A stretch of 64,000 nt of DNA, taken from NCBI RefSeq assembly GCF_030823375.1, contig NZ_JAUSXB010000001.1:3596001-3660000 (forward strand). The letters run 5' to 3'. Of the stretch, positions 4,125-12,842 are shown in pieces. Position numbers and translations under genes: made by a program. Source of the DNA: Pseudarthrobacter siccitolerans. GTDB taxonomy: Bacteria; Actinomycetota; Actinomycetes; Actinomycetales; Micrococcaceae. A model generated the notes under the pieces. The model was not told the origin of the DNA and did not search any database. It was given only the letters and a program-made list of their open reading frames with translations. Numbering within the stretch: the first letter of the stretch is position 1; each line of letters begins with the position of its first letter.

Positions 4125-4520
4125 TCAGCGCCCGTGTGCCCGGCCCTGTCCTCCTGTCTCCGTAGACGTGATGTTGAAGTTCTCATCGAAGTGGACGGTT
4201 GCACGGGTTCCGTCGGACTTCACGATGTGGGCCTCGTAGGCTGCGCCCTCGGCGTCCGTCTCAACCCGCTGAATGGTGGCACCGGGATTGGCGGCCAGGG
4301 CTGCATCCGTGACCTTGGTGGCCGTCCCGCCCGTCAGGAGGCTTTCGGTGATTCCGTTGGCCTGGTGTCCGCCCTTGGACTCATCGCGGGCCTGGGCGGT
4401 GGAGGACTGGCTGGAGTCCGGGGAAGGCGGCGCTGTGGCGGCGTTGGCAGCGATCGCCCCGCCTCCCACGACTGTTGCAAGGGCAAGACCGGCGAAAGCT
4501 GACTTTTTGCTGGTCTCCAT
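4125..4520 (-). CDS. Secreted PepSY-domain protein
   Basis: Exported protein of 131 residues. A textbook ribosome binding site (AAGGAG, 7 bases before the ATG) fixes the start at 4520, although the frame is open to 4748. N-terminal signal peptide: METSKK, then a hydrophobic Ala/Gly-rich core to about residue 28 (probable cut after ANA). A Ser/Gln/Asp-rich linker follows, then one PepSY-type unit: helix with TATKVTDAALAANPG, strands with IQRVETDAEG and YEAHIVKSDGTRATVHFDENF. PepSY modules usually act as inhibitory or binding domains outside the membrane; the partner is unknown. A similar layout recurs in many Micrococcaceae. Confidence 0.8.
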   Translation of the reverse strand: METSKKSAFAGLALATVVGGGAIAANAATAPPSPDSSQSSTAQARDESKGGHQANGITESLLTGGTATKVTDAALAANPGATIQRVETDAEGAAYEAHIVKSDGTRATVHFDENFNITSTETGGQGRAHGR

Positions 4521-4777
4521 GTCACATCTCCTTACTTCGAACGGACCCCTTTGCTTGAAGGGGATCCCTATATCATGCGCGCGCCGGTTCCCGCGGTTCC
4601 TTAGACAGGGCTGTGAATCTCCTGTGCATCCCGGCGGTCGACCGCGCCCAGTGTTGGTCGTAGTGGATCTGTTGTGACCTGGGCACACGGATCTACACTG
4701 GACTATTCCGCAATGGTGCGGGCCGGGCCGGCTGGGGGCACGAGCCAATAAAAGGTAAATATCGGGAAGGGCCGGTC

Positions 4778-5602
4778 ATGGTCAGTGCCTCGGGGAAAGC
4801 TAATCGGGCGGTATCCGAAGCTGCATCAGCGAGCCGAAGCCCGGCCTTGCGCGCCTTGGCTCGAGCCGGATACGTCTTCATCGGACTGGTCCACATCCTG
4901 ATCGGCGTCATCGCCCTTCAGGTTGACCGGGGACAGGGCGGCCAGGCAGATCAATCCGGCGCGATAGCATCTATCGCTTCCAAACCTGGTGGCCCCGCAC
5001 TGCTTTGGGCGGGGCTCGTGGCGTGCGCGGCGTTGGCGCTCTGGATGTTCAGCGAGGCGTTCTTCAATGCCCGCACCGAAACCGAGTCAAAAGAGAAACT
5101 GAAGAAGGCCGGGTCCGCCGTTGGAAAAGCCGTGGTGTTTGCTTTCCTGGCCTTTACCTTTGCGGTCTTCGCCTCCGGCGGAAGCAAGAACTCCAGCCAG
5201 TCTGCGAGCGACTTTACGGCCAAGTTAATGGGGGTACCCGCCGGCATGGTGCTGCTGGTCGCGGCCGGTCTGGCGATCATCGCAGCCGGTGCTTTCTATG
5301 CCTATCGCGGCGTTTCACGGAAGTTTATGGAGGACCTGCAGGACCCCGGCAACGGCCGGGCGGCTATCAAGTGGATCGGGACCATCGGCTACGCCGCAAA
5401 AGGCGTTGTTCTCGCCGTGGTGGGGGTTCTGATCATTGTTGCCGCGGCAACCGCGGACCCCTCGAAATCCTCAGGCCTGGACGGCGGGCTGAAAACTCTG
5501 GGTTCCCAGCCGTACGGGGTGTTCCTGCTGGCCGGCATCGCGGCAGGACTGATCTGCTACGGCGTGTACTCGATGGCCCGTGCGCGGTACGGGAAGTTTT
5601 AG
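4778..5602 (+). CDS. DUF1206 integral membrane protein
   Basis: Membrane protein of 274 residues built from three copies of a two-helix unit, the DUF1206 pattern: ARAGYVFIGLVHILIG near residue 30, GSAVGKAVVFAFLAFTF near 110, and IGTIGYAAKGVVLAVVGVL near 205. Each is followed by a second helix, so about six transmembrane segments. The ATG at 4778 follows GGGAAGGG. It ends with a basic tail (ARARYGKF). The function of DUF1206 is unknown. No partner gene is apparent: the NAD(P)-binding protein begins 108 bases downstream. Confidence 0.85.
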   Translation: MVSASGKANRAVSEAASASRSPALRALARAGYVFIGLVHILIGVIALQVDRGQGGQADQSGAIASIASKPGGPALLWAGLVACAALALWMFSEAFFNARTETESKEKLKKAGSAVGKAVVFAFLAFTFAVFASGGSKNSSQSASDFTAKLMGVPAGMVLLVAAGLAIIAAGAFYAYRGVSRKFMEDLQDPGNGRAAIKWIGTIGYAAKGVVLAVVGVLIIVAAATADPSKSSGLDGGLKTLGSQPYGVFLLAGIAAGLICYGVYSMARARYGKF

Positions 5603-5710
5603 GAGTGCTGCCCCTGCAACAGTCAGTGGCGGAGCGTTGACGCCTGCGGTGCCCGGTCCCAGGTTCTACACGCACTACAGCACCTCCACCCAATTTGAAG
5701 TGGAGCGGTC

Positions 5711-6613
5711 ATGATTCTCATTGTCGGTGCCACCGGTGATCTCGGCGGACGTGTTACCAGCCGGCTGCGCCTCGAGGGACAATCCGTCCGCTGCCTGGTA
5801 AGGACCAGCACCGACGACGCCGGGTTGCGCGGGATCGGTGCGGAGGTGGTGCGCGGGGACCTCACAATGCCGGCCAGCCTCAGGGCTGCATGCGGGGGCG
5901 CCGACGTCCTGATCGCGACCGCCACGGCGATGACCCGGCGCCTGGCAGGGGCCAGAAGTCCAAGCATCCGGGAGGTGGATGAGGAGGGCATGGTCGCATT
6001 GGTTGCGGCCGCCGAGGCCGCCGGCGTGCAGCGCTTCGTCTATCTTTCCTTCGCAGGGGTTGAGGCCTCTATCGGTACACCGCTTGAACACGCCAAGCTT
6101 GCAGTCGAGAGGCGCCTCAACGACTCAACTATGCAGACGGTCATCGTCCGCGCGGACGCCTTCCAGGAAGTCCACCTGGCCCCGATGGCCCGCTTTGACA
6201 TGGCCACAGGAAAGGCAGCCATCATCGGCAAAGGCAACACCAGGAGGCGGTGGGTGGCCACGGAGGATGTTGCCTCTCTCCTTTGCGCGGTAGCACTCGA
6301 GACTGACCCTCCTGCGCTGATCGAGTTCGGAGGCCCGGAGCCCCTGACCAAGAACGAGGCCATCGCGGTTGCTCAGGACCTCACTCATCGCAGGATGAAG
6401 GTCCAGCGGATGCCCCGCCCCGTAGCCCGTCTTTTGGTGCGTTTGCTCAAACGCCGTAACGACGCACTGGCCTCCGCCTTCGGCGCGGGGGTACACCAAG
6501 ACCTGAACGAGGCCACCTGGGACGATGAGCCCCTGCGCCGGCGTGGTATCAAGCCGAAGGCGGCCACGGACTTTCTCCGCGAACAGGCAAGCCGGCTCCC
6601 TACCCAAACCTAA
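5711..6613 (+). CDS. NmrA-like / atypical SDR NAD(P)-binding protein
   Basis: Rossmann-fold protein of 300 residues. The N-terminus carries the NAD(P) motif ILIVGATGDLGGRV (GxxGxxG, residues about 6-12). NADP-preferring basic residues follow strand 2 (CLVRTS), then GDLTMPASLRAACGGADV. There is no classical YxxxK pair, which fits the NmrA/HSCARG group of redox sensors and atypical reductases rather than classical dehydrogenases. The C-terminal half (about 200-300) is a variable substrate or partner domain. It is the last gene before the island boundary at 6628, only 14 bases away, and its codon use is host-like. Confidence 0.8.
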   Translation: MILIVGATGDLGGRVTSRLRLEGQSVRCLVRTSTDDAGLRGIGAEVVRGDLTMPASLRAACGGADVLIATATAMTRRLAGARSPSIREVDEEGMVALVAAAEAAGVQRFVYLSFAGVEASIGTPLEHAKLAVERRLNDSTMQTVIVRADAFQEVHLAPMARFDMATGKAAIIGKGNTRRRWVATEDVASLLCAVALETDPPALIEFGGPEPLTKNEAIAVAQDLTHRRMKVQRMPRPVARLLVRLLKRRNDALASAFGAGVHQDLNEATWDDEPLRRRGIKPKAATDFLREQASRLPTQT

Positions 6614-6627
6614 TGGGGTGGCCAGGC

Positions 6628-6729
6628 TTAACCAGCGAAAAACCCCGGAAACCCCCGTTTCCAGGGCTGTCCGGGGTTTCCCGAGCTTCCTATCAGAATC
6701 GAACTGATGACCTTTTCATTACGAGTGAA
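6628..6729. repeat. Island boundary repeat, distal copy (partial tRNA-Thr plus terminator)
   Basis: Direct repeat partner of 11042-11146. Three identical blocks are visible: 28 bases (6628-6655), 16 bases in the middle, and 50 bases (6680-6729) that include the T arm, variable loop and most of the anticodon arm of tRNA-Thr. Identity stops at 6729/6730, inside the anticodon stem. The inner part of the terminator hairpin differs between the two copies, while its outer stem is kept. This copy cannot make a tRNA because the 5' 27 bases are missing. Confidence 0.85.
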
Positions 6730-6858
6730 GGTATCCCGAACCTTCACGGCCACTCCCGCCACTGCCTTGAGACCCGTCATCTAGCTGTTTTTGCTAGACG
6801 AAGCATTCACGAGCGCTCCCGTGAATCACTTTTCAAAGTTGGTGGCCAGCCTTGAGCC

Positions 6859-7446
6859 CTACCTGGATAGGAGCAGGTCAAGCAGAGCAGGCAGGCTTGT
6901 GACGCCGTCTTCCGTCATGAAGTGTCCTGCTCGCGGGTGAATCTGCACCCGGGCGCTTAGGCGCCTGGCGATGTCATCGGATGCTTCCGGCGGCACGAAG
7001 GGATCCGTATCGGAGCGAAGGACTGTTCGTTCCCCGATGCTCATTGCCACCCGCTCAACGTCAACGTCAGTGGCGAGGAAACCATCGAGCTCCGGCAATG
7101 CTTCCAGGGGTTCAGTGAACCCGGCCACCAACACGAGACCGCCAAGCTCCCATGGCTCCGGCAACGCCGCGAGTACTCGCAGGACTGTGACCACACCGAG
7201 GGAATGGGCCACAACCACCGTTGCCGCATCGGGCACTCCGAGTGCCGCACTGACCGCGTTATCCCAAGCTGCCTTGTCAGGCTCGTCCGGATCGGGGAGG
7301 GAAACGACCGTGACTGCTATGCCTTCAGCTTCGAGGGCACTTTGAAGCCAAGGGAACCAGTTTGCATCCGGAGACGATTCGTACCCGTGGACGATGACGC
7401 ACTGTTGGACGGGTCGAACCGGGACTCTGCTGCCTTTTACCTTCAT
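6859..7446 (-). CDS. RBBP9/YdeN-family alpha/beta hydrolase
   Basis: Small serine hydrolase of 195 residues, the normal size for this family. The catalytic triad is visible: nucleophile Ser82 in VVAHSLGVV, acid Asp146 or Asp148 in LRSDTDPFVP, and His175 in RAGHFM. The oxyanion segment VIVHGYESSP lies near residue 20. Members hydrolyse esters or amides of mostly unknown substrates. It is the first cargo gene inside the island, pointing toward the distal repeat, and has no partner in an operon (its upstream neighbour is the 52-aa membrane peptide, 33 bases away on the same strand). Confidence 0.85.
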   Translation of the reverse strand: MKVKGSRVPVRPVQQCVIVHGYESSPDANWFPWLQSALEAEGIAVTVVSLPDPDEPDKAAWDNAVSAALGVPDAATVVVAHSLGVVTVLRVLAALPEPWELGGLVLVAGFTEPLEALPELDGFLATDVDVERVAMSIGERTVLRSDTDPFVPPEASDDIARRLSARVQIHPRAGHFMTEDGVTSLPALLDLLLSR

Positions 7447-7479
7447 AGGTAAAGACTCTAAGGGCCAGCTCGCGGAGCA

Positions 7480-7638
7480 TCAGCTGTCACCGCCCCGCGC
7501 GGCCCGCTTCAGCTCGGCGATCCTCAGCCGTAGGAAGATGATGGCCAGGACCAGGGCGTACACCGCCAGGACGGCCACCGCGATCATGAAGACGGCGTAC
7601 AGGATGCCCATAATGCCGAATGCTGGACTTGAAAACAT
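7480..7638 (-). CDS. Single-span membrane mini-protein (52 aa)
   Basis: Short gene found by reading the reverse strand. The ATG at 7638 is preceded by a purine-rich GGGGGT site about 6 bases away; the stop TGA is at 7480-7482. The product starts MFSSPAFGIMG, then has one hydrophobic span of about 25 residues (ILYAVFMIAVAVLAVYALVLAIIF, residues about 12-35). A basic amphipathic tail follows (LRLRIAELKRAARGGDS). Topology is probably N-out, C-in. No known family is recognised. It lies 33 bases upstream of the hydrolase on the same strand and may be co-expressed. Confidence 0.6.
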   Translation of the reverse strand: MFSSPAFGIMGILYAVFMIAVAVLAVYALVLAIIFLRLRIAELKRAARGGDS

Positions 7639-7712
7639 TTGCTACCCCCAAATAGTCGCTGGACCTAGGCTACGTGAGGGTGGCAGCTCAAGTTGCTGGA
7701 TAGGGTGAGCGG

Positions 7713-8249
7713 ATGAACTTCTCGTCCGAACTTTTCGACGGCGTTGTCCTCCGACCGGTCCGGAAGATGGACGCCCGCGCGCTGACGGAAGCGTTTCAGA
7801 AGAACCGAACCTATCTCGCGCCGTGGGAGCCGATCCGGCCCGACAGGTTCTACACCGTTCAGGGCCAGCAAGAAGTAATCGCGCGGCAACGGACCGAGCT
7901 GGGCGCGGGAACAGCTCTTCCTATGGTGCTGGCGAAAGAAGGAACCATCCTCGGTCTGCTGACCCTCAGCTCGATTGTGCGCGGCGCCTTCCAGAATGCT
8001 CATCTTGGCTACTGGATCGACCAGGCCGCCCAAGGTGCGGGACTGATGACCGCAGCCGTCGGCGCTGCCGTGAATATCGCCAAGCATGACTTGGGATTGC
8101 ACCGTCTGGAAGCGGCAACCCTTGTGCACAACACCGCATCGCAGCTGGTCCTGGAGAAGAACGGGTTCGCGTCATATGGCATGGCTCCCGCTTATCTGCA
8201 AATTGCTGGCCAGTGGCAGGACCACCGGATGTTCCAGCGGATTCTCTAA
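7713..8249 (+). CDS. GNAT N-acetyltransferase, RimJ/RimL type
   Basis: Acetyl-CoA-dependent acetyltransferase of 178 residues, the usual length. It shows the N-terminal VVLRPVRKMDARALTEAF, the central LGLLTLSSIVRGAFQNAHLGYWID strand pair (RimJ/RimL-specific), the acetyl-CoA pyrophosphate loop in DQAAQGAGLMTAAV, and the C-terminal LHRLEAATLVHNTASQLVLEKNGF. RimJ/RimL relatives acetylate N-termini of ribosomal proteins or small molecules; the substrate here is unknown. It is the only plus-strand gene in the island. A GC-rich hairpin with a weak T tract (8280-8303) follows. Confidence 0.87.
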   Translation: MNFSSELFDGVVLRPVRKMDARALTEAFQKNRTYLAPWEPIRPDRFYTVQGQQEVIARQRTELGAGTALPMVLAKEGTILGLLTLSSIVRGAFQNAHLGYWIDQAAQGAGLMTAAVGAAVNIAKHDLGLHRLEAATLVHNTASQLVLEKNGFASYGMAPAYLQIAGQWQDHRMFQRIL

Positions 8250-8279
8250 CTGCACGGTCCAGTTCCAGGGCAAAGAGGA

Positions 8280-8303
8280 GCGGGCCCAGTTCGCCGGGCC
8301 CGC
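8280..8303 (+). terminator. GC hairpin after the GNAT gene
   Basis: Inverted repeat GCGGGCCC / GGGCCCGC around an 8-base loop, 31 bases after the acetyltransferase stop. The downstream T tract is poor (CTAGTTTG), so termination is plausible but not certain. Confidence 0.45.
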
Positions 8304-8352
8304 CTAGTTTGCTGCCAGTCACTGTTCGGCAGGTTCTGCATGCACTTGAGTC

Positions 8353-8496
8353 TCAACCTCCCGAAGGGTTTTCCTTGGGTGTCCCATCAGGGTCCTCGGT
8401 TATAGGACGGTCTTCCTCGGGCTTCGTCTTCGGGCTTTCGGTCTGCGGGTCCTTTGGCTCGCCGACTGGCTGTTCCCTGGTTTCGGAGTCGCTCAC
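8353..8496 (-). CDS. Acidic Pro/Glu-rich mini-protein (47 aa)
   Basis: A perfect ribosome binding site (AGGAGG, 6 bases before GTG 8496) decides the start; longer upstream readings lack one. The product is 47 residues, almost wholly Asp/Glu/Pro/Lys/Ser/Thr (SDSETREQPVGEPKDPQTE and onward), hydrophilic and likely disordered. No family is recognised. It sits in the island between the GNAT gene and a hairpin that probably ends the membrane-protein operon. The strong start signal and lack of frame overlap with anything else argue that it is translated. Confidence 0.6.
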   Translation of the reverse strand: MSDSETREQPVGEPKDPQTESPKTKPEEDRPITEDPDGTPKENPSGG

Positions 8497-8529
8497 AATA
8501 GTCCTCCTGTTGAGTAAATTTGAGTGCGA

Positions 8530-8562
8530 AAAGGGGTGCGCCCCGTTCGCTGAGCGCACCCT
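8530..8562 (-). terminator. Probable terminator of the AlbA_2/membrane-protein operon
   Basis: On the minus strand, GGGTGCGC and GCGCACCC form an 8-bp stem around a 12-base loop and are followed by a CTTTT-containing tract. It lies about 150 bases beyond the membrane-protein stop and just ahead of the 47-aa gene. Confidence 0.5.
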
Positions 8563-8712
8563 TCTCGATTACCCCTCGCACCGGATCCCCATCCGACTGA
8601 GAACATAATAAGCATGCTTAGCAATGTGTGCGCAAGCCCATTTCGTATTCATAGCGGAAGCACAACCAGCATGTAGTCGGACCTTGCTGACGGCCAGATG
8701 CCCATGCAGAAC

Positions 8713-9411
8713 CTAGACGACTGCTCCGTCGTTGAGCTGCTTCCGCCTGGAACGCCGGGTAAGTCCACTCGCCCAGAAGGCGATCATGAGTCCTGCCGTC
8801 GCTGCCCCGCCGGCATGTATCCAGGGCGACGCCCATGCTCCTTCAGGAGTAGGAATTGCCACGGCCACCATCACTGCGGACACTGCCAGGAGTACCTCCA
8901 CGGCCGCCTGCGCCGGTCTGGCCCGATAATCAGGGCTGGCCAGCCGGGTCAGAGGAATGGCCGGCAAGAGGAACAGGCCGACGCTGAAGATCACGAAGAT
9001 GGCATTGAAGGTGAAGATCACCAGCCCCAGCACCAGCAGACCGACGAACTTCAGCAGCTGGCCAACCCGAAGCGGGTTATCCGGTGCCCACCGGCTCAGC
9101 AACAGCCCCCATGCAGGAAGCCCCAACAGCCAGCCGCCGGCCCAGAACCCAAGATCCAGGAGCGCCAGGGGAGCGAGCAGCGCCCCGGGAAGCAGGAACG
9201 CCACGGCCTGCCGAAGCGACGGGAGCTTGCCGGTGGGGCCGAAGATGCAGGCGCCGATCAGCAGGTAGGTCACCTCGTACCAGGGGAGCAGCTGGATTAT
9301 GGGGTCGGCCAGGCTGAACACAAGGAGGGTCAGAGCGGGAACCATGACGCAGACCGAGGCGAACGTCCACGGCTGGCGGGCAGTCGTCAGTTCATGGTGG
9401 TCCGAATTCAT
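8713..9411 (-). CDS. Polytopic membrane protein of unknown function
   Basis: A 232-residue membrane protein with about six or seven hydrophobic spans, starting with FASVCVMVPALTLLVF (about residues 17-32). Later spans include VTYLLIGACIFG, AVAFLLPGALLAPLALLDLGF, FVGLLVLGLVIFTFNAIFVIF, AAVEVLLAVSAVMVAVAI and AATAGLMIAFWASG. It ends with a basic tail (RRSRRKQLNDGAVV). I recognise no transporter or enzyme motif. Its ATG overlaps the end of the AlbA_2 gene by 4 bases, so the two are translationally coupled and probably work together. Both lie inside the tRNA-Thr island. Confidence 0.75.
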   Translation of the reverse strand: MNSDHHELTTARQPWTFASVCVMVPALTLLVFSLADPIIQLLPWYEVTYLLIGACIFGPTGKLPSLRQAVAFLLPGALLAPLALLDLGFWAGGWLLGLPAWGLLLSRWAPDNPLRVGQLLKFVGLLVLGLVIFTFNAIFVIFSVGLFLLPAIPLTRLASPDYRARPAQAAVEVLLAVSAVMVAVAIPTPEGAWASPWIHAGGAATAGLMIAFWASGLTRRSRRKQLNDGAVV

Positions 9412-10703
9412 GTTCCGACGAAGGAGCGGTTGAACAATTCAGGAGCCGCGACAAGGTCGGCCGGCTCGATGTTGAATTCCCCGGTAGTCACGACATCACT
9501 GCCGTCCTCAGTCAAAACCCAGGTCACAGCTACAGCTTCCGCATGAGGATCACGCGTCACGAGGACGTAGTCGTCCTCGTCGCTTGTCCAGGGCACATTG
9601 GGACGGAATGATTCTGGCGTGAGGACGACTACGACGTTGTTCCCTCTGTTGTTCCACTGGACCGGGTAGCCACGGACTGCGACGTGCAGGTCTGCGGGAT
9701 CGAATGCCGGTCCGTATGGACTAATTCGACGCATAACCGGCTCGACTACCTTCGCGAAATTCGCGTCGGCGGTCTCCCGATGATCGAACACCTCACAGTC
9801 GTGGAACGTAACTATGAGATGGGGCTTGGCCACAAACCGATCACGGCTCACAACCCGAATGCCGGCGCCCGGAAGTGCAACGCCGAGGAAATGGCGCCGG
9901 CCGTTTTGTAGGTGTTCTGGTCTTTCTTGACGCCATGTTGCCAGGCTGCCGGCACGATTTTCATCACTCGCTGGCTCTGTACCGCCGAGGATGGCTGGCA
10001 TGAAGACTGGGATGGTTGCCGTGGAGGAGGTCGGAGGCTTAGCAAAGCGTTCCTCCTCGCGCTTGTACAGGTACTCCAGTACCTCGTCCACACGAGCGAC
10101 TCGATTAATGGGTCCAAGGACCTGAACGTCCAGTGTGATTGCTGACCTGCCTGCCGCGCGTGCCCTTTCTACAAGGGCAAGTACTTCTCCTGCCCTTGCA
10201 GGGCGCGTGTTGCTGGCACCTCGCAGGTAGATTGCGCCGTCGTCCAAGTTGTCCTGCCTTTTGAATCCCTGGAAAGACTTGTGGCAGGGAAATATAGTCT
10301 GGCCGTCTACAGGGGGCGGGGAGATGACGAAGAGAACTTCACTTTCGGCGTCGATAGGGAGTCGGCCTAGTTCGAATGCCGGGAACTGTGGCCCAAGGTA
10401 AGGGCGCAACCGATCTTCTAGCTCGTGGGCTTCAGTACCTCGGGGGATGCCACCGGCCTTCCCCTTCTCCACCCCCACAACCAACACCGCATATCCATGG
10501 AAGTGCTTAGCCGCGTCATTCGGTCGACGATTTGCAGCTCCCAGGAGAAACTTCGCTACCTTCGCGATTCCTTCGGCTTTGGAAAAGTCGAGTTGGCTCT
10601 TCACCTCCAGATACCCTGCTTCTGCTTCATCGCCCACCGAAATTACGTGGTCCAAAATGTTGCGCAGTGCTCGCTCGCCTAGTGGGATCGTCCCTGTATC
10701 CAC
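9408..10703 (-). CDS. AlbA_2 (Schlafen-type) domain protein
   Basis: A 431-residue protein whose N-terminal third matches the AlbA_2 / Schlafen-like fold. It has the acidic-lysine motif YLEVKSQLDF (Glu33, Lys35), helix KVAKFLLGAANRR, then the strand HGYAVLVVGVEKGK typical of the GG-(A/T)-LxxGV element, and a later strand ESEVLFVISPPPVDG. The C-terminal 250 residues look unlike the common AAA_4 or winged-helix partners. Such proteins act as nucleic-acid-binding regulators or as nucleases in anti-phage and RNA-cleaving systems; the role here is unknown. It overlaps the membrane-protein gene by 4 bases. Third codon positions are unusually A/T-rich for this chromosome, suggesting recent transfer. 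Confidence 0.7.
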   Translation of the reverse strand: MDTGTIPLGERALRNILDHVISVGDEAEAGYLEVKSQLDFSKAEGIAKVAKFLLGAANRRPNDAAKHFHGYAVLVVGVEKGKAGGIPRGTEAHELEDRLRPYLGPQFPAFELGRLPIDAESEVLFVISPPPVDGQTIFPCHKSFQGFKRQDNLDDGAIYLRGASNTRPARAGEVLALVERARAAGRSAITLDVQVLGPINRVARVDEVLEYLYKREEERFAKPPTSSTATIPVFMPAILGGTEPASDENRAGSLATWRQERPEHLQNGRRHFLGVALPGAGIRVVSRDRFVAKPHLIVTFHDCEVFDHRETADANFAKVVEPVMRRISPYGPAFDPADLHVAVRGYPVQWNNRGNNVVVVLTPESFRPNVPWTSDEDDYVLVTRDPHAEAVAVTWVLTEDGSDVVTTGEFNIEPADLVAAPELFNRSFVGT

Positions 10704-11041
10704 GCGCTACTCTCCAGCCATCTAGTCCTGCCTTAACGGTAGCTGCCGTCTATGGATAGCTTCGGCGATGCTTGTACGGGGCATGTCGGACTCTGAAGCC
10801 TTGGATAGCCAAGATCGTGCCCAAGCGTGTTTCCGACGCCGAAACCGACACGAACTCTTTCCGCCTGTTCCACAACAGGTGGAGGATTAGCAGTCGGTGC
10901 CCAGATGCAAGTGAGCAGGGGAGCCCTAGCAGGACCGCTTACTGGAGCGGGACTAAAATCGCTTCACACCTACATAAGTGCTGCTGAAGGAGCGCGAAAG
11001 TGTGCCATAAATGTGCCCCGAACCTAAAGAGGGCTTCAGGA
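10704..11041. other. Island end without recognisable gene
   Basis: About 340 bases between the AlbA_2 start and the tRNA-proximal repeat. Short open frames exist on the plus strand, but none has a family signature or a convincing start site. It probably contains the promoter of the AlbA_2 operon. An integrase gene would be expected here, and I see no trace of one. Confidence 0.5.
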
Positions 11042-11146
11042 TTAACCAGCGAAAAACCCCGGAAACCCCTAAATTTAGGGGCTGTCCGGGGTTTATCCCG
11101 AGCTTCCTATCAGAATCGAACTGATGACCTTTTCATTACGAGTGAA
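11042..11146. repeat. Island boundary repeat, tRNA-proximal copy
   Basis: Direct repeat partner of 6628-6729. It contains the tRNA-Thr terminator and the 3' 46 bases of the intact tRNA-Thr gene (11101-11146). The 50-base block 11097-11146 is identical to 6680-6729. Confidence 0.85.
11052..11094 (-). terminator. Terminator of tRNA-Thr(CGU)
   Basis: On the minus strand, an outer stem (CCCCGGA / TCCGGGG) encloses a perfect inner hairpin (CCCCTAAATTTAGGGG) and is followed by five Ts. It lies just after the tRNA 3' end. A variant copy with a different inner hairpin lies at the far end of the island. Confidence 0.8.
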
Positions 11147-11173
11147 ACGCTCTACCGACTGAGCTAAGGAAGC
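11101..11173 (-). tRNA. tRNA-Thr (anticodon CGU)
   Basis: A 73-base cloverleaf on the minus strand: acceptor GCTTCCT / AGGAAGC, D arm GCTC / GAGC, anticodon stem TTTCA / TGAAA around loop CTCGTAA (anticodon CGT, codon ACG), and T arm ATCAG-TTCGATT-CTGAT. CCA is not encoded. The 3' end serves as the insertion site of the island at lower coordinates, and the integration leaves the tRNA intact. Confidence 0.95.
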
Positions 11174-11276
11174 ACCGCATTCCTGCCCGGAAGAACCGGG
11201 CCCTTCATGCAAGAGTCAACTGTAATAGAGTCCCGGCGCCCGGGTCAAAATGGCCGGGGGTAGGGGGCTGAGGCCT

Positions 11277-12842
11277 TTAGCACACTGTGTTGTCGGCCGG
11301 GACCTGACCGCTCACCAGGTAGCGGTCAACAGGGTCCTCGATGCAGCTGTTGGACCGACCGTAGGCAGTGTGGCCTTCGCCGTTCCAGGTCAGCAGGGAG
11401 GCATTGCCCAGCTGCTTCCGGAGCGAGGCGGCCCACTCCACCGGTGTGGCGGGGTCACCCGTAGTACCGATGACCACAATGGGGGTTTCGCCCCTGTACT
11501 CCATGGGTGCCGGGGTGCGGAGGTTCTTGTACGGCCAGCCGGCACAGTTGGTGCCGCCGTAGGCGAAAAAGTACCCGAATGTGGGGGACTCCTGCACCAG
11601 CTGCTGCTTTTCGGCCCGCATGCTGGCCGTGTCGGACGCCGTGGGATAGTCCAGGCAGTTGATGGCGCTAAATGCGAACGATGAATTGGAGGTGTACGTC
11701 CCGTTGGAGGCGCGGTCGGCACTCAGGTCTGCGAGTCGAAGCATCAGGCTCACGTCCCCTGCCATGGCCGCATCGAGGGCCTGCGTGAGCGCAGGCCAGC
11801 TCTGATCGTTGTACAGCGGGGTAATCAGGCCGCTGACGAACATGGTGGCGTTAACCATCCGGCCGTCCTTGGCGGTGCGGGGCGTCTGCTGTACAGCGTT
11901 GATGAGGTCCCGGATCTGCTGCACGCCGGAATCGACATTTCCGCTCAGCGGGCACTTCTCCTGCTCAAGGCAGCTCTCAACATAAGCCCCGAGGGACTTT
12001 TCAAAGGCGCGTGCCTGGCCGCGGGTCAGTTCCTCGCTGCTGATGGAGGGATCAAGGGCACCATCGAGCACCATACGGCCCACATTGTCCGGGAACAGCG
12101 AAGCGTAGGTGGACCCCAGGAACGTGCCGTAGGAGTACCCGAGGTAGTTCAGCTTTGCGTCGTTGACCACGGCACGGAGGATGTCCAGGTCCTTCGCGGA
12201 GCTCACAGTATCGATATGGGCCAGCACGGGCCCGGTCTGCTCAGAGCACTTGGCGGCGACGGCCTTATTGTCTGTCAGCGCCTCCTGCAGGCCGGCGTCC
12301 GTGTCCAGGTTGTAGATCTTGGCACGGGCCGCGTCGCGTTCGGCATCCGTCATGCAGGCAACGGGCGCGGAGCGCTTTACACCCCGGGGGTCGAAGCCCA
12401 CCAGGTCGTAGGCGTTCCGCACCGCCTGCGAAAAGTGCGTTCCCGCTGCGTCCTTGACGAAGTCGTACCCGGACGCGCCGGGGCCGCCGGGGTTGACGAG
12501 CAGGCTGCCCGTTTTGTTGCCCGTGCTCGGGGCCCGCAACGCCGCCAGTTCAATGGTTTCGCCGCCGGGATTACCGTAATCCATGGGCACTTCGACCTTG
12601 GCGCACTGGAAGTTGTTTTCGCACGGCTCCCACACCACTTCCTGCGAGTAGAACTGTTCAAGCCCGGCCGGAGCGGACGCCACAATCGAGGGGTCAGCCT
12701 TCGCCGTGGCTGCCTCCTGGCTGCGGTCTCCGCCGTTCAGGAGGCTGCAGCTGGCCAGGACCATGGCAAGGGCCATGGCCCCGGCGGCACGTGCCGCAAT
12801 CGCCCAGGATGCGGGGCGTGCAGGCAGGGGGCGGGCAGTCAT
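11277..12842 (-). CDS. TAP-like alpha/beta hydrolase lipoprotein (tripeptidyl aminopeptidase type)
   Basis: Exported peptidase or esterase of 521 residues. A lipoprotein signal ends in the lipobox LASC with Cys32 as the acylated residue, so it is anchored to the outer face of the membrane. The hydrolase core shows LLVNPGGPGASG (oxyanion region), FDPRGV, and the nucleophile Ser237 in NYLGYSYGTFLG. The C-terminal TAP-like domain supplies Asp (TGDPATPVEW) and His (GEGHTAYG). Relatives in Streptomyces (SlpD/SlpE, Tap) release tripeptides from N-termini. It is followed on the same strand by nothing; upstream, 19 bases away, is holB, a common order in Micrococcaceae. Confidence 0.88.
   Translation of the reverse strand: MTARPLPARPASWAIAARAAGAMALAMVLASCSLLNGGDRSQEAATAKADPSIVASAPAGLEQFYSQEVVWEPCENNFQCAKVEVPMDYGNPGGETIELAALRAPSTGNKTGSLLVNPGGPGASGYDFVKDAAGTHFSQAVRNAYDLVGFDPRGVKRSAPVACMTDAERDAARAKIYNLDTDAGLQEALTDNKAVAAKCSEQTGPVLAHIDTVSSAKDLDILRAVVNDAKLNYLGYSYGTFLGSTYASLFPDNVGRMVLDGALDPSISSEELTRGQARAFEKSLGAYVESCLEQEKCPLSGNVDSGVQQIRDLINAVQQTPRTAKDGRMVNATMFVSGLITPLYNDQSWPALTQALDAAMAGDVSLMLRLADLSADRASNGTYTSNSSFAFSAINCLDYPTASDTASMRAEKQQLVQESPTFGYFFAYGGTNCAGWPYKNLRTPAPMEYRGETPIVVIGTTGDPATPVEWAASLRKQLGNASLLTWNGEGHTAYGRSNSCIEDPVDRYLVSGQVPADNTVC

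What the first reader, a model, noticed from the sequence alone, without database searches (positions are those of the whole stretch)
6628..11146. A 4.5 kb island in the tRNA-Thr(CGU) 3' end with no integrase
The 3' 46 bases of the tRNA plus its terminator are duplicated at 6628-6729 and 11042-11146, enclosing six cargo genes with odd codon use. This is the mark of site-specific integration, yet I see no recombinase. The element may be a decayed island, or a minimal cargo unit moved by a recombinase acting in trans.
Basis: partly seen in the sequence, partly recalled or inferred. Interest (0 to 1): 0.7.

Follow-up and report, generated by a model that had tools for sequence, protein, structure and literature searches.

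The report
Integrase-less remnant island beside tRNA-Thr
A small patchwork of six genes sits between two copies of the end of a transfer-RNA gene in a bacterium; it looks like the worn-down remnant of mobile elements that once inserted there, and relatives that still carry the inserting enzyme show how it was lost.

Summary
The 3' half of tRNA-Thr(CGU) plus its terminator is duplicated at 6628-6729 and 11042-11146, enclosing six genes and no recombinase. Both ends look like attachment sites of one tyrosine-integrase family. The right end keeps a tandem pair of putative arm-type sites (AAGTGTGCC) at the spacing of an integrase-bearing relative, G100. The left end matches G100 for 110 bp (79%) beyond the repeat, then stops inside G100's first integrase-side arm site, upstream of where its integrase begins. 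The genome has two Phage_integrase hits, both of XerC/XerD size. Sites without the island, integrase-bearing elements and eroded copies occur in the genus. The interval is a composite: its right 2.5 kb was found at high identity in one relative only; there the 431-aa gene diverged about 6-8 times less at silent sites than neighbouring genes, so it was probably exchanged recently. Best reading: a decayed, composite, CIME-like remnant. A cargo unit still moved in trans is disfavoured, not excluded. New member of a known kind. In passing: the elements checked at this tRNA carry their own terminator behind the tRNA half, and a dispersed RNA-like element lies inside the island.

The parts
6628..6729 (+). 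attL-side repeat: intrinsic terminator (6638-6679) plus 3' half of tRNA-Thr(CGU); core TTTTCATTACGAG at 6713
6730..6839 (+). remnant of the integrase-side attP arm; ends inside the first left arm-type site of G100 (CAAAGT, then no homology)
   Evidence: 79% over 110 bp with G100:C51; 84.7% over 215 columns when the repeat is counted in; G100's integrase starts 285 bp beyond the end of the match
6840..6856 (.). junction between attP arm and hydrolase gene
   Evidence: arm homology ends at 6839; homology to hydrolase loci elsewhere starts at 6852-6857
6859..7446 (-). alpha/beta serine hydrolase (PF06821), 195 aa
7480..7638 (-). small membrane-type protein, 52 aa, no family
7713..8249 (+). GNAT acetyltransferase (PF13302), 178 aa; best NCBIfam model is ribosomal protein S5-alanine N-acetyltransferase, below its cut-off
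8353..8496 (-). small acidic protein, 47 aa, GTG start
   Evidence: homologues at 69-73% in L126, L129, L130
8527..8650 (-). dispersed RNA-like element (promoter-like hexamers around a TAAGCATGCTTA palindrome, about 75 nt, terminator-like hairpin: read by eye from the alignment); its edge at 8527 is the homology breakpoint with G176
   Evidence: no Rfam match
8713..9411 (-). hydrophobic protein, 232 aa, no family; overlaps the next gene by 4 nt
   Evidence: dS to G176 0.27
9408..10703 (-). conserved actinobacterial protein, 431 aa; some homologues are titled 'Schlafen AlbA-2 domain-containing' in UniRef; no Pfam, NCBIfam or PADLOC match
   Evidence: dS to G176 0.041
10998..11017 (+). tandem pair of putative arm-type sites AAGTGTGCC / AAATGTGCC (10998, 11009)
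11042..11146 (+). attR-side repeat: terminator plus 3' half of tRNA; core at 11130
11100..11173 (-). intact tRNA-Thr(CGU), the integration target

Best explanation
This is a decayed, composite remnant of site-specific integrations at tRNA-Thr(CGU). A tyrosine-integrase element of the type still present in G100 and G192 recombined at or beside the anticodon loop; its attP supplied a new tRNA 3' half and terminator, so the tRNA stayed whole (inferred from anatomy). Its integrase gene and integrase-side arm-type sites were then deleted, joining the attP arm to the end of a hydrolase gene (comparison shows the join; deletion is inferred). Cargo in between was replaced piecemeal: the genes left of 8527 are absent from the matching place in G176, and the 431-aa gene with the right end was probably exchanged recently between the two lineages. 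In this genome it should be stuck (inferred).
For: Left end: 79% over 110 bp beyond the repeat to the integrase side of G100:C51, stopping inside its first arm-type site. Right end: arm-type pair at -132 and -121 from the core, the same offsets as in G100:C8. The 19-nt right-arm motif (up to 1 mismatch) occurs in 15 of 206 genus genomes, reversed control 0; 14 of the 15 lie at this tRNA or a partial copy (positions). Integrases of at least 50% identity to G100's: 3 of 206 genomes. Own genome: 2 PF00589 hits, of XerC/XerD size and score. Single-copy sites without arm pair in the fetched stretches: G182, G123, G127. Erosion series: attL core lost with a terminator fragment left in G037 and G095; no left copy in the fetched stretches of G176, G143, G064. 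Composite: G176 shares 8527-11040 only; dS 0.041 for the 431-aa gene against 0.24-0.33 for four other genes, with the step at about 9400.
Against: No relative seen has both repeats with this cargo plus the integrase, so the direct parent is unseen. The closest integrase-bearing element (G100) lies on two contigs, so that its two ends belong to one element is inferred. Arm-type sites are inferred from repeats and spacing, not from binding data. The low divergence of the 431-aa gene rests on one pair of genomes. XerC/XerD identity rests on size and score, not on a tree. Single cargo genes lie near this tRNA in G095, G117 and G143 without a full second repeat, so part of the cargo may be resident at the locus rather than brought by this element.
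Confidence: 0.8

Rival explanations
1. A still-mobile cargo unit (CIME-like): attL and attR work and a visiting element's integrase excises it, alone or together with itself after tandem insertion.
For: Both cores and the right arm pair are intact; integrase-bearing relatives exist in the genus; repeated occupancy is visible, e.g. an arm-type site outside the left repeat in G197; accretion of an incoming element beside a decayed one is described for CIMEs (PMC5704250, passages read).
Against: The integrase-side arm-type sites are lost; no further PF00589 hit in the genome; the 232-aa gene diverges from G176 at chromosomal rate, as expected of a resident.
Confidence: 0.12
2. Not site-specific integration: a partial tandem duplication of the tRNA with its terminator, later separated by inserted genes.
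For: The terminator is part of the repeat, which a crossover in the anticodon loop does not require.
Against: A phage, a plasmid and int-bearing elements carry a tRNA-half-plus-terminator segment near tyrosine integrases; the repeat ends 4 nt past the anticodon loop; both ends match attP arms. Phage Hestia is tabulated with attB tRNA-Thr-CGT, 52-bp core and tRNA reconstruction in PMC10865867 (passages read).
Confidence: 0.04
3. Old chromosomal region inherited vertically, not an insertion.
For: The 232-aa gene differs between G000 and G176 as much as core genes (dS 0.27 against 0.24-0.33), so that part is old in this pair; single cargo genes lie near the same tRNA in a few relatives.
Against: Island absent from the fetched loci of near relatives G182, G123 and G127; long cargo match beside the tRNA only in G176 of 197 others; low GC and odd codon use of two genes.
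Confidence: 0.04

Closest known systems
CIME (cis-mobilizable element), as defined in PMC5704250 (passages read)
   Same: Lacks integration and transfer genes, bounded by att cores in a tRNA gene, at a site occupied repeatedly.
   Different: Integrase-side arm-type sites are lost; descent from an ICE or IME is not shown; the cargo is a mosaic.
Arthrobacter phage Hestia (cluster AY), attB tRNA-Thr-CGT, 52-bp core (PMC10865867, Table 2 passage)
   Same: Same target tRNA and core; terminator carried beside the tRNA half.
   Different: A whole phage. Of its two annotated integrases, gp38 has no match to the G100 integrase at E 1e-3 and gp36 has 25% over 156 aa; no AAGTGTGCC-like site within 5700-6500 of L033.
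Integrase-bearing elements of the genus: G100 (C51 and C8), G192 (about 54 kb, with BREX genes), G197 (9.6 kb, with a type ISP restriction gene)
   Same: Same tRNA or a copy of its 3' half; G100 and G192 share arm sites and integrase family with this island's ends.
   Different: Keep an integrase. No cargo homologue in the fetched part of G192's interval; on G100:C8 a homologue of the 232-aa gene lies about 38 kb from the tRNA, where the element's extent is unknown.

Membership tests
CIME | No integration/excision gene | tested here: met
CIME | No conjugation genes | tested here: met
   Pfam on the gene products; four of the six have no family, so the negative is by lack of match
CIME | Retained attL and attR | tested here: inconclusive
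   Cores and right arm pair present; left arm-type sites cut
CIME | Derived from an ICE or IME by deletion | tested here: inconclusive
   Ends match an integrase-bearing element; whether that element has transfer genes was not searched
CIME | Mobilised in cis after accretion | not testable with these tools
   needs an excision/transfer assay
tRNA-targeted genomic island (tyrosine integrase type) | Target tRNA left whole, with a second copy of its 3' half at the far end | tested here: met
tRNA-targeted genomic island (tyrosine integrase type) | Integrase at the end opposite the intact tRNA | tested here: not met
   absent here; present in G100 and G192

The most novel reading that the evidence does not exclude
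Mobile elements at this tRNA carry a replacement terminator as a second restored part of the gene, and right-end segments (tRNA half, terminator, arm sites and the adjoining gene) are exchanged between species as units at an already occupied site, so that integrase-less remnants keep taking up new cargo.
Probability: 0.2. Interest if true: 0.55.

Novelty: new member of a known kind. Interest (0 to 1): 0.35.

Why it matters
It gives a sequence-level erosion series for one integration site: int-bearing element; island with int and left arm sites gone; island with left core gone; right-arm sites only. By two patterns at least 22 of 206 genomes, occupied ones included, carry right-arm sites beside this tRNA or a partial copy of it (with positions), while a close integrase is found in 3 of 206; so short arm motifs beside a tRNA show past occupancy that integrase searches miss. 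Of the integrase-bearing elements, the proteins I picked for scanning in G192, G197 and G100 include BREX, restriction and methylase genes, so the locus may be a defence hotspot.

Tried and rejected
Trans-acting recombinase in the same genome: PF00589 gives 2 hits. PF00239 gives 6 domain hits at 4 places, one in a 464-aa frame; I set these aside because serine integrases are not known (recalled) to use tRNA halves with arm-type sites. This was not tested.

Integrase fragments inside the island: tblastn of 6 integrases gave no hit with E below 0.1 anywhere in the window and none inside the interval.

Function of the 431-aa protein: the AlphaFold2 model is weak (pLDDT 66) and the Foldseek hits have query TM of 0.2 or less; discarded as uninformative. 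Whether it is an AlbA_2 protein is not settled; the name comes from UniRef titles.

Plasmid and phage collections: no record holds 80% of the island. Rfam on 5500-12000: only the tRNA passes its gathering score. A search of both collections with the tRNA 3' half alone (7 phage and 5 plasmid records) added no further element that I followed up.

Literature: no paper of the held library has all my terms for attP, tRNA and terminator; one paper for a wider set (listing only). This is weak evidence, since most subscription papers are missing. Arthrobacter plus genomic island plus tRNA-Thr plus integrase gave one unrelated paper (listing). CIME terms: listing, then passages of PMC5704250. Arthrobacter phage terms: listing, then passages of PMC10865867 and PMC5513430. 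Small-RNA terms: two papers, listing only.

Limits of the searches: the whole-genome DNA and protein searches score only the best few candidate places per genome (up to 2, 4, 8), and print a capped list.
Full report
WHAT IS THERE. tRNA-Thr(CGT) lies at 11100-11173 on the minus strand. Its 3' 47 nt, 4 nt beyond, and a similar terminator recur at 6628-6729. With 6628-6760 as query these are the only two matching places in the genome; with the whole tRNA in the query one search counts four, two of them not printed. Between the copies are six genes: alpha/beta hydrolase, 52-aa peptide, GNAT acetyltransferase, 47-aa acidic peptide, 232-aa hydrophobic protein and a 431-aa conserved actinobacterial protein. 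GC is 59.7% against 64.4% for the rest of the window. Codon use is odd for the hydrolase and the 431-aa gene, borderline for GNAT and ordinary for the 232-aa gene (the 35 reference ORFs were pre-filtered for GC3 above 0.7; no size-matched reference for the two small genes).

THE SITE IN RELATIVES. Of 198 genomes of the genus (own included), all 198 match the tRNA region. In the 20 stretches first fetched, the backbone (a 158-aa gene, an aldo-keto-reductase-like gene [name recalled], the tRNA, a TAP-like hydrolase) recurs in most, and what lies between reductase and tRNA varies. Nearly empty sites: 318 bp between the last backbone match and the repeat in G182, and 481 bp in G090, though G090 keeps one arm-type site. 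G123 and G127 have a single repeat with other genes to its left (ORFs of G127). The cargo DNA search found one long match beside the tRNA outside the window's own genome, in G176 (window 8527-11040, 94%). The other matches of its printed list cover one or two genes, mostly at other loci; a few lie near this tRNA (G095, G117, G143).

BOTH ENDS LOOK LIKE ATTACHMENT SITES OF ONE INTEGRASE FAMILY. G100:C51 holds a repeat copy at 4246-4350 and a 438-aa tyrosine integrase (PF00589, E 2.3e-22) at 4746-6062. Beyond the repeat the window's left end matches it over 110 bp at 79%; with the repeat counted in, 215 columns at 84.7%. Tandem AAGTGTGCC sites (the first one in G100 and the second in G192 with a mismatch) begin 119 and 131 nt after the start of CATTACGAG in G100:C51, and at the same two distances in G192; G167 has the pair too. 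On the other side the pair stands at -132 and -121 from TTTTCATTACGAG in both the window and G100:C8 (all). In the window the left pair is missing: homology ends at CAAAGT, the start of the first site, and homology to hydrolase loci elsewhere begins 12-17 bp further on. I read this as deletion of integrase and integrase-side arm sites. The repeat ends just past the anticodon loop, so the crossover was probably there (inference; the anticodon loop is called common for mycobacteriophage sites in PMC10865867, passages read).

HOW COMMON. The right-arm motif with at most one mismatch is in 15 of 206 genomes, reversed control 0. Fourteen lie at this tRNA or a partial copy (positions); for G154 no printed tRNA match is near. 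A looser pattern, one arm site plus terminator start, is in 15 of 206, control 0; 8 of those are additional, giving 22 of 206. It misses G000 and G176, whose second site reads AAATGTGCC. G117 shows a further variant. Left-arm homology is in 4 of 206: G000, G100, G167, G192. Integrases of at least 50% identity are in 3 of 206 (23 of 206 at E 1e-30 or better): G100, G192 and G167, the last broken into two pieces. G192's interval from tRNA to left copy is about 54 kb, of which 3 kb was not fetched, and carries PglX, PglZ, BrxL and a BrxC cut by the end of the fetched stretch.

COMPOSITE HISTORY. Against G176, dS is 0.041 for the 431-aa gene but 0.27 (232-aa gene), 0.24 (reductase), 0.33 (TAP) and 0.32 (158-aa gene). 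dN/dS of the 431-aa gene is about 0.6, and in G176 it has one in-frame stop. The divergence step is at about 9400; 10704-11041 is 95.5% identical; the right limit is blurred between 11042 and 11400. So 9400 to the tRNA was probably exchanged after the two lineages split, the 232-aa gene is older, and the part left of 8527 differs altogether. The 8527 breakpoint coincides with the edge of a dispersed element: many matches in other genomes start at the same base of the cargo query.

PORTABLE TERMINATORS. Behind the tRNA half, nine attachment copies folded into a strong hairpin (window left and right, G100 C51 and C8, G197 left and right, G138, phage Hestia, plasmid pYJN5-2), and a tenth, in Microbacterium phage R1, shows one by eye (all): ten copies from seven elements. 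The hairpin is followed by a T run except in pYJN5-2, where the run is poor. The hairpins of Hestia, pYJN5-2 and the tRNA-side copy of G197 differ in sequence from the terminators at single-copy sites of G127, G182 and G090, so copying of the host sequence for recombination does not explain them; the terminators of the phages' and plasmid's own hosts were not looked at, nor those of G192 and G167. No shuffled control was run; I treat it as a lead. In PMC10865867 'terminator' occurs 0 times in the main text.

MECHANISM AND CONFIDENCE. Shown by comparison: repeats, arm homologies, missing integrase, relatives with and without elements, mosaic divergence. Inferred: order of events, arm-site function, present immobility. 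Confidence 0.8 for a decayed composite remnant.

NOVELTY. Elements that lost integration and transfer genes but kept att sites are known as CIMEs in ICE/IME biology (PMC5704250, passages read). Membership is not claimed, because the left arm is incomplete and the parent's transfer type is unknown.

Noticed in passing
8527-8650, minus strand: Dispersed element of about 115 bp: promoter-like hexamers around a TAAGCATGCTTA palindrome, about 75 nt with conserved hairpins, and a terminator-like hairpin with an almost invariant loop (read by eye from 29 aligned copies). Matches in 62 of 198 genus genomes at E 0.01 or better, many partial; no Rfam match; fold z -3.9 on this strand and -4.4 on the other. 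Different genes follow it: 47-aa acidic peptide, small membrane proteins, GlsB/YeaQ-like (name recalled). Candidate small RNA or leader.
   Followed up: partly
6613-6855 (+) and Hestia gene 42 (L033:5886-6071): Open frames run antisense through the tRNA half; the phage one is annotated as a gene though it overlaps attP. Probably spurious.
   Followed up: no
6603-6627 against 11017-11041: Weak similarity (about 17 of 25, from the 85% over 53 nt) continues outside the repeats; the NmrA-like gene's stop lies in it. May be a scar of a still earlier element, as the arm site outside the left repeat in G197 suggests.
   Followed up: partly
L064:14819-14821 (G176): In-frame stop in the G176 copy of the 431-aa gene, which is open in the window.
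   Followed up: no
L203:9039-19495; L065:12853-16101; L068:14626-16035: Stretches between this tRNA and int-bearing ends carry BREX type 1 genes (G192), a type ISP restriction enzyme (G197) and a cytosine methylase (G100).
   Followed up: partly
L119, L122, L124-L130: Hydrolase, GNAT, 47-aa and 232-aa genes recur in varying order at other loci of the genus, some within about 0.4-4 kb of tRNA-Leu or tRNA-Ser genes.
   Followed up: partly
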